A stretch of 64,000 nucleotides of DNA from Clostridia bacterium (GTDB taxonomy: Bacteria; Bacillota; Clostridia; Oscillospirales; Acutalibacteraceae), in the NCBI GenBank assembly GCA_017516745.1, contig JAFXBF010000006.1, positions 1 through 64,000 on the forward strand, read 5' to 3'. Shown piece by piece: positions 19,228-64,000 of the stretch. The notes under the pieces were generated by a model, which saw nothing but the letters and a program-made list of their open reading frames with translations, searched no databases and was not told the DNA's origin. Made by a program: the position numbers and the translations under genes. The first letter of the stretch is position 1, and the number at the start of each line of letters is the position of its first letter.

Positions 19228-20082
19228 ATGGCACCGAAAAAAGGCGGACTCGGAAGAGGACTTGATGCACTTCTTGTCGATAACTCGATTGAAAATATTT
19301 CAGCATCCTCCGCAGTCAAACTCAAGCTCAACGAAATTGAGCCCAACAAAAACCAGCCCAGAAAGAATTTTGACGATGAGGCACTTGCCGAACTGAGTGC
19401 AAGCATACAAAAACACGGCGTTATTCAGCCGCTTCTCGTGCGCCCCCTGCCCAGCGGTAATTATCAGCTTGTCGCAGGCGAAAGGCGCTGGAGAGCATCC
19501 AGAATGGCAGGGCTTACGGAAGTACCCGTTGTTATAAGGGAACTCAGCGATGAGGATGCGGCCGCACTTGCGCTTATTGAAAACCTGCAGAGAGAAGACC
19601 TTGACCCGATTGAAGAGGCAGAGGGCTACAAGTACCTTATGGATAACTACTCACTCACGCAGGAAGAAGCCGCACAGCGTGTGGGTAAATCACGCTCCGC
19701 AGTTGCCAACCTTATGCGTTTGCTCGCACTTCCCGCAGACGTGCTTGCTTTGGTGAGTGAAAAGAAGCTTTCTGCAGGCCACGCAAGAGCTCTCCTTCCC
19801 CTTGAGGACGGTGCGCTTATAAAGCAGTTTGCCGATGAAATTATTGCAAACGGCTATTCGGTAAGGCAGACGGAAAAGCTGGTAAAGGATTTCCTTAAGC
19901 CTAAAAAAGCACCCAAAGCCGCACCCGAAAGGGACAAGTACATCACCGAGGTTGAGCTTTCACTCTGCGAAACACTTGCCAGAAAGGTCAGCGTAAACGC
20001 CAAGGGCAAGGGCGGCACGATTACAATAGAATACTTTGACAGCGATGATTTGAGAAAGCTTGCAAAAATGTTTGAGGAATAA
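19228..20082 (+). CDS. parB: Chromosome-partitioning protein ParB/Spo0J
   Basis: A 284-residue ParB protein. It binds parS, uses CTP to slide along DNA and loads condensin. The N-terminal ParB domain is seen in NKNQPRKNFDDEALAEL and the CTP-site GERRWRASRMAGL. ENLQREDLDPIEEAEGY and the helix-turn-helix around EEAAQRVGKSRSAVANL follow. The start has an AGGAGGAG site. The pair with parA is classical, though here it continues into rqcH and not toward gidA or rnpA. Confidence 0.96.
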   Translation: MAPKKGGLGRGLDALLVDNSIENISASSAVKLKLNEIEPNKNQPRKNFDDEALAELSASIQKHGVIQPLLVRPLPSGNYQLVAGERRWRASRMAGLTEVPVVIRELSDEDAAALALIENLQREDLDPIEEAEGYKYLMDNYSLTQEEAAQRVGKSRSAVANLMRLLALPADVLALVSEKKLSAGHARALLPLEDGALIKQFADEIIANGYSVRQTEKLVKDFLKPKKAPKAAPERDKYITEVELSLCETLARKVSVNAKGKGGTITIEYFDSDDLRKLAKMFEE

Positions 20083-30415: not shown

Positions 30416-30426
30416 AAAATAATAAT

Positions 30427-30615
30427 CACCCTGCCTTGTGCGACAACTTTCGGCAATACTAACCCAACACTCTTTTTATAGGGATGCCTGCTCCGACAGC
30501 GGATTGCAGACCTCCCGCCTTTTCAGGCGGACGAAGGGAGCGTGAACCTGTTGGGAGGCGACCCACCTGCTTTTACACGCAGGTTAATATTAGCCTTGAG
30601 CGGCTTGGCGGGGTG
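30427..30615 (+). ncRNA. Structured RNA, candidate 6S RNA (SsrS-like)
   Basis: A 189-base region folds as a long rod. The ends pair, CACCCTGCC (30427-30435) with GGCGGGGTG (30607-30615). GGC-AATACTAA (30452-30462) pairs with TTAATATT-A-GCC (30584-30595), and CCCAACA (30463-30469) with TGTTGGG (30549-30555). A small hairpin ACCTGC/GCAGGT (30565-30584) sits on the 3' side, and CTCCC/GGGAG (30512-30540) is in the far arm. Length, closing stem and the 3'-side hairpin are as in 6S RNA, which binds housekeeping RNA polymerase. It lacks the SRP GGAAGGAAGC motif. Class not confirmed. Confidence 0.5.
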
Positions 30616-30620
30616 ACCTA

Positions 30621-61400: not shown

Positions 61401-62309
61401 ATGGAAAACCAGAAAGCCAAGAAAGTTCTTGTTATAATCAATCCCTGTTCAGGCAGATACACACTCAAAAAACAGCTCTGGCATATTGCCGATATGTTCA
61501 CAAAGGCAGGCTTTGAAACCACCGTTTACACCACACAGAAGCGTGGCGACGCAACGGAATACGCAAAGCTCCTTGCCGACAAATTCGACCTTATTGTCTG
61601 CCGTGGCGGTGACGGCACATTCAACGAAACCGTAAACGGCGTTATTCAGTCGGGTATCGAAATACCGATTGGCTATATTCCCAGCGGCACGACTAACGAT
61701 TTTGCCGCCAGCATAGGCGTACCCACAGACGCACAGAAGGCAATTGACCTCATCTGCGAGGTTGAGCCGAAATTCCACGATATGGGTCAGATGAATAACG
61801 AGCGTTATTTCTGCTATACCGCTTCCTTCGGTATATTCACCAAAGCCTCATACTCCGTTTCCCAGTCGGCAAAAAATGTATTCGGCTATCCTGCTTACTT
61901 CCTTGCAGGTCTTAAAGAGCTCAAGGGCTTCAAGCCGTTTGCAATGAGAATTGAGTGTGATAACGTCGTTTACGAGGGTGAATACGCCTTCGGCGCAATT
62001 TCGAGCTCACTTTCAATCGGTAACATCATCAAGTACAAGCGAGAGGACATAGGCTTTGACGACGGTCTGTTTGAGCTCAACCTTGCCAAAATGCCCCACG
62101 GCGCAAAAATGTGGACAGAAAAGGCCAAGGAAATCCTTTTGCAGCACACCTATGCCGACGATATGTTCACCCTCACCAAGGGTAGTCACTTTGTTGTAGA
62201 GTGTCTTGACTGCGAGCTTCCATGGACACTTGACGGCGAATACGGCGGAACATATAAAATTGCCGAATTCGACTGCCGTAAGCACGCAGTAAAGGTTTAC
62301 AGAAGTTAA
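61401..62309 (+). CDS. Diacylglycerol kinase-like lipid kinase (YegS/DgkB family)
   Basis: A 302-residue cytoplasmic lipid kinase. The signature GGDGT is in VCRGGDGTFNETVNG, and IPSGTTNDFAASIG is the second conserved stretch. VIINPCSGRY opens the fold. Substrate is probably diacylglycerol or a related lipid, returned to phosphatidic acid during membrane and lipoteichoic acid turnover. Confidence 0.9.
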   Translation: MENQKAKKVLVIINPCSGRYTLKKQLWHIADMFTKAGFETTVYTTQKRGDATEYAKLLADKFDLIVCRGGDGTFNETVNGVIQSGIEIPIGYIPSGTTNDFAASIGVPTDAQKAIDLICEVEPKFHDMGQMNNERYFCYTASFGIFTKASYSVSQSAKNVFGYPAYFLAGLKELKGFKPFAMRIECDNVVYEGEYAFGAISSSLSIGNIIKYKREDIGFDDGLFELNLAKMPHGAKMWTEKAKEILLQHTYADDMFTLTKGSHFVVECLDCELPWTLDGEYGGTYKIAEFDCRKHAVKVYRS

Positions 62310-62339
62310 GTTTTATGATAATAAAACTATTGACAACAC

Positions 62340-62368
62340 AGGTAAAGCTGAATATAATAAAAGTGTAA
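62340..62368 (+). promoter_or_regulatory. Promoter of the plus-strand antisense RNA
   Basis: A consensus TTGACA, a 17-base spacer and TATAAT lie here on the plus strand, facing the toxin-like gene. The transcript would begin close to GTAAGGTGTTGCC at 62367-62379. Confidence 0.8.
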
Positions 62369-62460
62369 GGTGTTGCCGATAGACGGTTACGCCCTCATTA
62401 ATTGGAAATTAAAGATTTAACCGCCAACTTTTGCAGGGTCCGGCGGTTATTTCTTTTTAT
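62368..62460 (+). ncRNA. Candidate antisense antitoxin RNA
   Basis: A predicted short transcript of about 90 bases from the promoter at 62340 to the stem AACCGCC (62419-62425)/GGCGGTT (62442-62448) with a T-rich tail. It is convergent to, and complementary with, the 3' end of the toxin-like mRNA, the normal arrangement of type I antitoxins. Start and end are inferred, not measured. Confidence 0.6.
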
Positions 62461-62545
62461 GCTCAAGAATTGCAATAAACAACCCTACTATGCCGACAAT
62501 TACGGCTGAAAACGCAAAAAGGCTTTCATATGTAACGTACTGCAT
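62447..62545 (-). CDS. Small hydrophobic holin-like toxin, type I TA candidate
   Basis: A 32-residue protein with a single membrane helix flanked by an acidic start and a Lys-rich end: YESLFAFSAVIVGIVGLFIA, then ILEHKKK. This fits the short holin-like/Fst-like type I toxins. ATG 62545 is seven bases after AGGAGG; an ATG at 62551 is too close. Its stop lies in the arm of the shared terminator stem. A minus-strand promoter TTGACT-17-TAATAT lies near 62617-62655. It is too short for usual gene calling. Confidence 0.7.
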   Translation of the reverse strand: MQYVTYESLFAFSAVIVGIVGLFIAILEHKKK

Positions 62546-62616
62546 AAGCATCCCTCCTTTCAGAGGGCAAAGAGTGCAACCGCCTACCGTTGTAAGGCAA
62601 CACCTTACCCGAGTAT

Positions 62617-62655
62617 ATTAGCACAAATGTTCGTATAAGTCAACATCATCTGCAA
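62617..62655 (-). promoter_or_regulatory. Promoter of the toxin-like gene
   Basis: On the minus strand, TTGACT, a 17-base spacer and TAATAT. The transcript begins near GTAAGGTGTTGCC (complement at 62601-62613), the same 13 bases that begin the antisense RNA, so the two 5' ends match. Confidence 0.65.
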
Positions 62656-62674
62656 AAGAACTTAAACAAACTGC

Positions 62675-62703
62675 TTGACACGGCGAATTAAAAGTGATAT
62701 ATT
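62675..62703 (+). promoter_or_regulatory. thrS promoter
   Basis: A perfect TTGACA at 62675-62680, a 17-base spacer and TATATT at 62698-62703. It drives the T-box leader. Confidence 0.75.
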
Positions 62704-62734
62704 GTTTTTATTATTTATATTAATAACACGATGA

Positions 62735-62980
62735 AGCAGAATGTGTACAGCACAAGCTGTCTGCAGAGAGTCCGCCAAAAGCTGCAAGGCGGATATTCAG
62801 CCGTTGTACCGACCGCTGCCGAGTGCCTGCGAAGCCGTTGATTTTCGGATAAGCTGTGCCGTATGACTGCGTTAAGGTCGCTATGAGAGGCGTACTTTTT
62901 TTGTACGCAACACGGGTGGAACCGTGGAGTATTGTTTATTGTAATGCTTCACCCTGTATTTTTCGGGGTGGAGTATTTTT
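62735..62980 (+). promoter_or_regulatory. T-box leader for threonine, with terminator
   Basis: The leader binds uncharged tRNA(Thr) and lets transcription through when threonine-tRNA is scarce. GCAGAGAG near 62763-62770 starts stem I. ACC codons at 62808-62810 and 62812-62814 are placed for the specifier and fit Thr. The T-box core ACACGGGTGGAACCGTGG is near 62910-62927. The terminator is CTTCACCCTG (62947-62956) with CGGGGTGGAG (62964-62973), followed by TATTTTT. Which ACC is the true specifier is uncertain. Confidence 0.88.
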
Positions 62981-63025
62981 ATTTTCCGTTTAATTAAACT
63001 ATTCTTCAGAAAGGATGATATAAAA

Positions 63026-64000
63026 GTGATTAACGTAACACTCAGAGACAATGTAGTTAAGGAGTACGAAAACGGCACTACCGTTGCCGAAATTGCAAAA
63101 AGTCTCGGTATGGGTCTTTACAAGGCCGCCTGTGTTGCAAGGGTAAACGGCGAGGTCTGCGACCTTCGCACAGCACTTGACGCAGACGCTCAGGTTGAGA
63201 TTCTCACCTTTGACGACGAGGAAGGCAAGAAGGCTTTCCGCCACACAGCTTCACACATTCTTGCACAGGCTGTCAAAAGGCTTTATCCGCAGGCAAAGCT
63301 TGCTATCGGCCCTGCTATAGATAACGGCTTCTATTACGATTTTGACTGCGATGTTTCCTTCACACCCGAGGTGCTTGAAAAAATTGAGGCCGAGATGAAG
63401 AAAATTGTCAAGGAAGGCATTGCACTTGAAAGATATGAGCTCTCCCCTGCCGATGCAATTGCAAAGATGGAGGAAAAGGGCGAAATCTACAAGGTTGAGC
63501 TTATCAAAGAGCACGCCGACAAGGGCGAGAATATCTCCTTCTTCAAGCAGGCTGAATTTGACGAGCTTTGCGCAGGCCCTCACATTCCCGACACCTCCCG
63601 TGTAAAGGCATTCAAGCTCACCTCCGCAACAGGTGCATACTGGAGAGGCGACTCCAAGAACAAGATGCTTCAGAGAATCTACGGCACAGCCTTCACAAAG
63701 CAGGCCGACCTTGAAGCTCACCTTGAAGCTATTGAAGAGGCAAAGAAGCGTGACCACAATAAGCTCGGCCGTGAGCTTGAGCTGTTCACAACTTCAGACG
63801 TTATAGGTCAGGGTCTGCCGATTCTTCTGCCCAAGGGTGCAAGAATCATTCAGCTGCTCCAGAGATTTGTTGAGGATGAGGAGCAGAAGAGAGGCTGGCT
63901 TCTCACAAAAACACCCTATATGGCAAAGAGCGACCTTTATAAAATTTCAGGTCACTGGGATCACTATCAGGACGGTATGTTCGTTTTAGGCGATGAAGAA
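63026..64000 (+). CDS. thrS: Threonine--tRNA ligase (5' part, runs off the window)
   Basis: The first 325 residues of a class II aminoacyl-tRNA synthetase; the frame is open to the window edge. A TGS domain occupies about 1-62 (INVTLRDNVVKEYENGTTV), then the editing domain with FRHTASHILAQAVKRLYP and later CAGPHIPDTSRVKAFKLTS. The catalytic domain begins near 245 (KRDHNKLGRELELF). The start is GTG, ten bases after AAGGA. It is controlled by the T-box leader upstream. Confidence 0.95.
   Translation, partial: MINVTLRDNVVKEYENGTTVAEIAKSLGMGLYKAACVARVNGEVCDLRTALDADAQVEILTFDDEEGKKAFRHTASHILAQAVKRLYPQAKLAIGPAIDNGFYYDFDCDVSFTPEVLEKIEAEMKKIVKEGIALERYELSPADAIAKMEEKGEIYKVELIKEHADKGENISFFKQAEFDELCAGPHIPDTSRVKAFKLTSATGAYWRGDSKNKMLQRIYGTAFTKQADLEAHLEAIEEAKKRDHNKLGRELELFTTSDVIGQGLPILLPKGARIIQLLQRFVEDEEQKRGWLLTKTPYMAKSDLYKISGHWDHYQDGMFVLGDEE

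What the first reader, a model, noticed from the sequence alone, without database searches (positions are those of the whole stretch)
62340..62655. Candidate type I toxin-antitoxin locus with convergent RNAs and a shared terminator
A 32-residue single-helix, Lys-tailed peptide on the minus strand has a good ribosome site and its own promoter. A near-perfect promoter on the plus strand drives a short RNA into the 3' end of that mRNA. Both meet at one stem that can terminate in both directions, and both RNAs begin with the same 13 bases (GTAAGGTGTTGCC). This is the plan of pAD1 par-like and txpA/ratA-like systems, but the peptide and the matched 5' ends look distinct. It sits between a lipid kinase gene and the thrS T-box.
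Basis: partly seen in the sequence, partly recalled or inferred. Interest (0 to 1): 0.72.

Follow-up and report, generated by a model that had tools for sequence, protein, structure and literature searches.

The report
Exchangeable gut-bacterial type I toxin-antitoxin cassettes
This is one copy of a widespread family of tiny membrane-peptide genes in gut bacteria, each paired with an antisense RNA that starts with nearly the same letters as its own target; here the peptide gene also appears wired to the DNA-damage alarm.

Summary
The window's genome holds 13 copies of one chassis: convergent promoters, a shared bidirectional terminator and a conserved antisense RNA. The 12 complete copies carry three types of short hydrophobic peptide; one copy is an antisense RNA alone. 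A covariance model of the antisense RNA finds it in 68 of 398 genomes of the family at E<=1e-6 (hand count) and in named Lachnospiraceae and Negativicutes. No Rfam family matches. The matched 5' ends are locus-specific: own match 10.0 of 12, swapped 8.0, best of 10,000 permutations 8.45 over 86 loci; 9.7, 7.8 and 8.3 for 49 distinct ends. The match covers about -2 to +13. At the same site, three relatives carry another peptide type on the same flanks. The window's toxin promoter, and 5 of the 11 others, contains the 12-mer that stands upstream of recA; lexA and a Y-family polymerase gene have near variants. Best reading: a type I toxin-antitoxin system, par-like in plan, SOS-inducible at this locus. 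Transcripts, toxicity and LexA control are inferred.

The parts
62330..62358 (+). antisense-RNA promoter, TTGACA-17-TATAAT
   Evidence: 12 of 12; antisense promoters average 10.6 of 12 matches in 74 loci, toxin promoters 8.6
62365..62460 (+). antisense RNA (putative antitoxin), about 96 nt
   Evidence: model R1 match, 101.9 bits (this copy is also in the model); alignment A1 of 13 copies; ends inferred from promoter and terminator
62365..62377 (+). matched 5' end X of the antisense RNA, GTAAGGTGTTGCC
62369..62393 (+). antisense hairpin SL1 (5' end folded on GGTTACGCC around loop GATAGAC)
   Evidence: 5' arm pairs better with its own 3' arm than with swapped arms
62391..62396 (+). GCCCTC in the antisense RNA, complementary to Shine-Dalgarno GAGGG-type sequences (possible anti-SD, part of X')
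   Evidence: sequence; own versus swapped pairing with the SD region 34 of 5000 in set 1, 962 of 5000 in set 2
62418..62449 (.). shared bidirectional terminator stem TAACCGCC/GGCGGTTA
62447..62545 (-). 32-residue membrane peptide (putative toxin, type T1); its Lys codons overlap the antisense terminator T-run
   Evidence: Hol_Tox E=0.0027 below cut-off; pN/pS 0.34 over 101 pairs of related peptides, pairs not independent
62552..62559 (-). Shine-Dalgarno AAGGAGGG
62563..62568 (-). GCCCTC in the mRNA leader, can fold on the SD in cis
   Evidence: fold of the L001 leader
62596..62608 (-). matched 5' end X of the toxin mRNA, GTAAGGTGTTGCC
62615..62643 (-). toxin promoter TTGACT-17-TAATAT with extended -10
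62621..62632 (-). putative LexA (SOS) box GAACATTTGTGC, between -35 and -10
   Evidence: identical 12-mer upstream of recA, GAACATATGTGC upstream of lexA, GAACATTTGTTC upstream of a Y-family polymerase gene; present at the same site in 3 relatives, one with a base change

Best explanation
A chromosomal type I toxin-antitoxin cassette. The minus strand makes a short mRNA for a single-helix membrane peptide; the plus strand makes, from a stronger promoter, a ~96-nt antisense RNA that overlaps the mRNA 3' end and shares its terminator. The antisense RNA should pair with its own mRNA at the terminator region (perfect antisense) and, through the 3' arm of its 5' hairpin, with the mRNA start region: its anti-SD can cover the ribosome site, and because both RNAs begin with nearly the same ~13 nt, the mRNA 5' end can replace the antisense 5' end on that arm (strand exchange). 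At this locus the toxin promoter carries a LexA-type box, so DNA damage would raise toxin mRNA over a constant antisense level. The same chassis is filled with different peptides, apparently by recombination. Shown here: architecture, conservation, locus-specific 5' match, constraint on the peptide, shared SOS-like box, a different peptide at the same site in relatives. Inferred: transcripts, LexA binding, RNA pairing in the cell, toxicity, the recombination.
For: 13 copies in one genome with one antisense RNA and three peptide types. Antisense RNA found across the family and beyond. Own antisense-mRNA duplexes -90.5 to -100.9, cross mean -55.0 kcal/mol (11 mRNAs of G000). Own 5' match 10.0 versus 8.0 of 12 over 86 loci, 0 of 10,000 permutations as high; 9.73 versus 7.82, maximum 8.33, in 49 loci with distinct ends and no selection on the match; in the second set 8.5 versus 7.62, maximum 8.12, in 26 distinct ends absent from the first. 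Match confined to about -2..+13. mRNA 5' end with antisense 3' arm: own -8.34, swapped -7.20, 0 of 5000; mRNA 5' end with own leader: 2722 of 5000. Antisense promoter stronger than toxin promoter in 52, equal in 17, weaker in 5 of 74. SOS-like box in 6 of 12 toxin promoters of this genome and 0 of 74 antisense promoters. Same-site peptide difference. pN/pS 0.34.
Against: No transcript, toxicity or LexA-binding data. The pairing test used loci chosen for a 5' match of 9 or more of 12, and mRNA-X follows antisense-X, so it is not independent proof of trans pairing. The reciprocal pairing, antisense 5' end with the mRNA leader, showed no signal (740 of 5000). In the second set the two main tests are marginal (278 and 295 of 5000), anti-SD pairing is not significant (962 of 5000), and the two tests against the mRNA leader gave unusable energies. 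Counting outer-stem pairs in folds did not separate own from swapped arms (5.0 versus 4.8). Six of 12 toxin promoters here have no such box. 29 of 115 model hits and 28 of 73 in the second set had no SD-preceded peptide with usable leader by my rules and were left out. In the second set only 12 of 26 new distinct ends match at 9 or more of 12.
Confidence: 0.72

Rival explanations
1. The matched 5' ends serve RNA stability or a shared RNA-binding protein or RNase: both RNAs wear the same 5' element, and repression is only by the 3' overlap (RatA-like, RNase III).
For: Both 5' regions can fold locally; the own 3' duplex is already very strong; trans pairing of the 5' ends is only indirectly supported.
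Against: A shared protein would not require the two ends of one locus to match each other while differing from other loci (in G000 base 11 is A/A or G/G in 12 of 12 loci, read by eye).
Confidence: 0.3
2. A small membrane peptide under antisense control that is not a toxin (signal, membrane-stress or SOS checkpoint peptide).
For: Many copies kept per genome; toxicity untested; peptides diverse.
Against: Layout and peptide shape resemble type I toxins; weak Hol_Tox similarity.
Confidence: 0.25
3. The 13-bp inverted pair are terminal repeats of a miniature transposon.
For: Dispersed multi-copy element with sharply bounded inverted ends; no element at the orthologous site in 4 relatives.
Against: Promoters lie outside the repeats at fixed spacing on both sides; at the kinase-thrS site homology goes on beyond the repeats; ends differ between loci of one genome. 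Transposase and target duplications were not searched for.
Confidence: 0.05

Closest known systems
par of pAD1 (RNA I/RNA II, Fst/Ldr family)
   Same: Convergent promoters, bidirectional terminator, second region of complementarity over the translation start, SD hairpin in the toxin mRNA (passages of PMC7472228)
   Different: Peptides are not recognised as Fst; contact near the start would be carried by a structured 5' hairpin; the two RNAs have matching, locus-specific 5' ends, which the passages read do not describe for par
txpA/ratA and bsrG/SR4 of Bacillus subtilis
   Same: Antisense RNA overlapping the 3' end of a hydrophobic-peptide mRNA in Firmicutes (named in passages of PMC6563280; the layout is recalled)
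   Different: Longer toxins and prophage setting (recalled); no matched 5' ends known to me; not compared by sequence here
tisB/istR-1, dinQ/agrB of E. coli
   Same: SOS-inducible membrane peptide with an antisense RNA (passage of PMC6563280; abstract openings)
   Different: Different arrangement and unrelated peptides (recalled); the passage read names SOS-inducible type I systems from E. coli only
C. difficile CD2517.1-RCd8, CD2907.1-RCd9, CD0956.2-RCd10
   Same: Convergent overlapping type I modules in Clostridia (passage)
   Different: Toxins of 50-53 aa without homology to known type I toxins (passage); here 21-37 aa
Pfam PF16935 Hol_Tox
   Same: Type T1 peptide aligns over residues 5-32 of 32
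   Different: Below the curated cut-off; of 10 peptides of the chassis scanned, 3 touch Hol_Tox, all below cut-off

Membership tests
Type I toxin-antitoxin (general) | small hydrophobic peptide, one membrane helix, charged tail | tested here: met
   104 of 105 distinct peptides have a 15-residue stretch of mean hydropathy >=1.8; 97 of 105 end in K (peptides had been picked by position and SD; helix itself not modelled)
Type I toxin-antitoxin (general) | antisense RNA complementary to the toxin mRNA | tested here: met
   sequence overlap; own duplexes -90.5 to -100.9 kcal/mol; transcription not tested
Type I toxin-antitoxin (general) | toxicity relieved by the RNA | not testable with these tools
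   needs expression experiments
Hol_Tox PF16935 | score at or above the curated cut-off 23.3 bits | tested here: not met
   18.0 bits, E=0.0027
par/Fst family | convergent promoters and bidirectional terminator | tested here: met
par/Fst family | Fst-type peptide with PXXXG motif (motif) | tested here: not met
   no proline in the window peptide; no Fst model hit in Pfam
par/Fst family | direct repeats giving complementarity at the translation start | tested here: inconclusive
   anti-SD GCCCTC present; own pairing better than swapped in set 1 (34 of 5000), not in set 2 (962 of 5000)
SOS-regulated type I systems (tisB-like logic) | LexA box in the toxin promoter only | tested here: inconclusive
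   the sequence is there, shared with recA and absent from antisense promoters; LexA binding and induction not tested
txpA/ratA family | sequence similarity of peptide or antisense RNA to TxpA/RatA | not tested
   no direct comparison made; no Rfam hit at the element
Rfam families | match to a curated RNA family | tested here: not met
   no family at the element up to E=1 (only the neighbouring T-box)

The most novel reading that the evidence does not exclude
A widespread regulatory platform in gut Clostridia and Negativicutes in which the antitoxin RNA mimics its target's 5' leader: near-identity of the first ~13 nt works as a per-locus address for strand exchange, which lets one cell keep a dozen insulated toxin cassettes and swap peptides in and out of them, some under SOS control.
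Probability: 0.4. Interest if true: 0.85.

Novelty: new variant of a known kind. Interest (0 to 1): 0.72.

Why it matters
It would add a large type I toxin-antitoxin family in major gut bacteria; the papers listed by my searches (capped lists, open-licence papers only) showed none by title or abstract opening. It would extend SOS-inducible type I toxins beyond the E. coli examples, and offer a testable case of an antisense RNA that must match, not only complement, its target. Coevolving 5' ends and different peptides on a fixed chassis make the question of how many paralogous antitoxins avoid cross-talk directly testable.

Tried and rejected
Rfam at gathering over the window: only 6S; at E<=1 over 62250-63050: only a T-box. 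NCBIfam: no hit; PHROGs: one weak hit of unknown function (E=0.051). blastn of the element against plasmids and phages: no match at E<=0.01. The R1 tally at E<=0.01 (167 of 398 genomes) was rejected as inflated, because bidirectional terminators on the opposite strand score about 20-33 bits; I count best_E<=1e-6 instead. Outer-stem pair counts from MFE folds did not separate own from swapped arms. An alignment of 40 hairpins (A2) was not used for pair counts because its register shifts between loci. The 13-mer alone is weak evidence: with up to 2 mismatches it has 79 hits in the genome against 90 for the reversed control; only the inverted pairs at element spacing count. The miniature-transposon reading was considered and disfavoured. 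No structure prediction was run.

Rows used: the loci outside G000 were the 30 loci that one search returned (one, L050, repeats the window) and 60 regions that I picked by hand from its listed matches; not every listed match was fetched. Of 115 model hits in 102 loci, 86 entered the 5' test (some near-identical to each other), 74 nonredundant ones with match >=9 the later tests, 42 with distinct X. Of 73 hits in the second set 45 were used, at least 3 of them (L160, L191, L158) loci of the first set (repeated without them).

Full report
What is there. A 32-residue ORF on the minus strand, with a good SD, ends inside the first arm of a stem that can terminate both ways; a 12-of-12 promoter on the plus strand should start an RNA at 62365, and the toxin promoter one at 62608; both would begin GTAAGGTGTTGCC. 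The Lys codons of the tail are, on the other strand, the T-run of the antisense terminator, so tail and terminator constrain each other (inference from the sequence).

It is one of 13 copies. tblastn finds 9 places in the genome at E<=10, the window's own included, and the inverted 13-mer pair, with up to 2 mismatches, recurs. Reading the loci gives 12 complete copies and one antisense RNA without a peptide (L027). In the antisense RNA, 27 of the first 32 columns and most of the terminator stem are invariant in 13 of 13. The peptides fall into three types: T1 (window, L009-L012), T2 MVTYE[EN]LFLFGTLLVSIIALVVELTKKK (L013-L016) and T3 MEYLVM..ILV.ATGYIYTIKKK (L025, L026, L028). L011 has a foreign stretch of a few hundred bases with inverted ends in its leader.

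SOS-like box. Six of the 12 toxin promoters (L001, L012, L013, L015, L025, L026; checked again) hold GAACATTTGTGCTAA, and these are the only 6 exact places in the genome. The 12-mer GAACATTTGTGC also stands just upstream of recA, GAACATATGTGC upstream of lexA, and GAACATTTGTTC upstream of a Y-family polymerase gene (domains). In a wider set, GAACN4GTNC occurs in 10 of 74 toxin promoters and 0 of 74 antisense promoters, all 10 in the window's genus; in the second set GAACN4GTTY occurs in 4 of 37 toxin promoters (L189, L202 and a tandem pair in L171) and 0 of 37 antisense promoters; shuffled promoters give 0.13-0.15 over all 111. I take these as LexA boxes by inference; binding is untested, and most toxin promoters outside the genus show no such box.

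Distribution. A covariance model of the antisense RNA (R1) was run over 398 genomes of the family: 167 match at E<=0.01, but weak scores include bare terminators; 68 of 398 genomes (46 of 135 genera, both counted by hand from the table) have a best match at E<=1e-6 (at most 10 candidates per genome were scored, so copy numbers there are capped). In a draw of 398 genomes of the phylum, 13 match at E<=1e-6. Three of the 9 loci without a match (L178, L194, L219) are labelled Proteobacteria or Myxococcales and look like chance. A bin labelled Bacteroides (L156) does match; I did not check its label. Not every named locus shows the whole plan: for C. comes my search found no convincing matched 5' end, and for Phascolarctobacterium no peptide. 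The relative G292 is isolate RGIG2072, 'Clostridia bacterium', goat colon (L160; same coordinates as G414); the window's genome is of the same genus.

The matched 5' ends. For 86 loci with an SD-preceded peptide, the first 12 nt of the antisense RNA match their own mRNA leader at 10.0 of 12 on average (76 of 86 at 9 or more), swapped leaders at 8.0, best of 10,000 permutations 8.45; shuffled 12-mers 7.5; another antisense segment 7.7. Some of these loci are near-identical; with one locus per distinct end and no selection on the match (49 loci) own is 9.73, swapped 7.82, best permutation 8.33. Examples of different shared sequences: AAAAGGCAACC (L073, L127), GTAAGGAACGGC (L134), ATAGAGTGTYCC (L074). 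In the named set (45 loci) own is 9.0, swapped 7.6, best permutation 8.16; without loci shared with the first set and with distinct ends only (26) it is 8.5, 7.62 and 8.12, with 12 of 26 at 9 or more. By position, own identity exceeds swapped from about -2 to +13 and is at background over the rest of the promoter and after +13 (the anchor was chosen by best match among loci with match >=9, which inflates the inside of the window but not its flanks). A transcribed, RNA-level constraint fits best. Differences between the two ends are mostly transitions (99 versus 25; control between loci 183 versus 105) and mostly U in the mRNA against C in the antisense RNA (54 versus 5).

A mechanism for the match. 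In the antisense RNA the 5' end folds onto a 3' arm that runs into an anti-SD-like GCCCUC. Among 42 distinct 5' ends, the antisense 5' end pairs better with its own 3' arm than with others (0 of 5000), and so does the mRNA 5' end with the antisense 3' arm (0 of 5000), while the mRNA 5' end with its own leader shows nothing (2722 of 5000), nor does the antisense 5' end with the mRNA leader (740 of 5000); antisense 3' arm with SD region 34 of 5000; two controls 3450 and 1720 of 5000. So the identity may exist because both 5' ends must fit the same antisense arm. These loci had been selected for a match, the two 5' ends are correlated, and the second set is only marginal (278, 295 and 962 of 5000; its pattern had fixed part of that arm), so this step stays an inference.

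Specificity and dosage. In G000 each antisense RNA binds its own mRNA far better than others (mean -96 versus -55 kcal/mol over 11 mRNAs; closest cross pair -83.5; the insert-bearing L011 was left out). Antisense promoters are nearer consensus than toxin promoters.

A different peptide at the same site. The lipid-kinase gene is found in 11 of 11 genomes of the genus. In four (L142-L145) it runs straight into the thrS T-box with no element. In three (L140, L141, L146) a gene follows (GNAT family, tested in L141) and then the chassis with a T2 peptide (read; L140 has GTG in place of ATG); in the window the chassis carries T1, yet the flank next to the T-box, the box-bearing promoter and the outer leader align closely. 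The remaining three (L147-L149) have other sequence after the kinase gene, only 257 bases of it held in L149. Replacement of the peptide segment inside a standing chassis is the simplest reading; separate insertions at one spot are less likely. No recombination test was run.

Literature. The listings of my full-text searches showed no description of this family by title or abstract opening; they are capped and cover open-licence papers only. I read passages, not whole papers, of PMC6563280, PMC9045289 and PMC7472228. Subscription papers, for example the 2010 survey of type I systems by Fozo and colleagues (recalled), were not seen.

Verdict. A type I toxin-antitoxin system by architecture, to all appearance undescribed as a family, with two unusual traits (coevolving matched 5' ends; one chassis, many peptides) and probable SOS control at this locus.

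Noticed in passing
window 62722-62959 (+): thrS T-box leader scores 70.7 bits, below its Rfam gathering score of 93.
   Followed up: no
window 30425-30618 (+): 6S RNA, 76.8 bits.
   Followed up: no
L027 559-651 (-): Antisense RNA with promoter and terminator but no peptide gene; its best partner among 11 mRNAs of the genome is L025 (-69.2 kcal/mol), so it may guard in trans.
   Followed up: partly
L011 leader (G000:C5 about 19600-19900): A stretch of a few hundred bases with inverted ends (AAAGCATAGAATAGGCGAAC) lies inside the leader of one copy; looks like a miniature mobile element.
   Followed up: no
L057, L058, L060, L069, L075, L078, L097, L109, L118, L121, L131, L138, L171, L189: Two or more antisense copies in tandem, starts about 337-696 bp apart, often with nearly the same peptide.
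   Followed up: no
L171, L183, L188, L223 and others: A further peptide type, with a core like GLIAVISLCLTxFGLGYxIG, is common among the named loci on the same chassis.
   Followed up: partly
L140, L141, L146: A GNAT acetyltransferase gene (Pfam-tested in L141) sits between the kinase gene and the cassette in three relatives and is absent in the window.
   Followed up: partly
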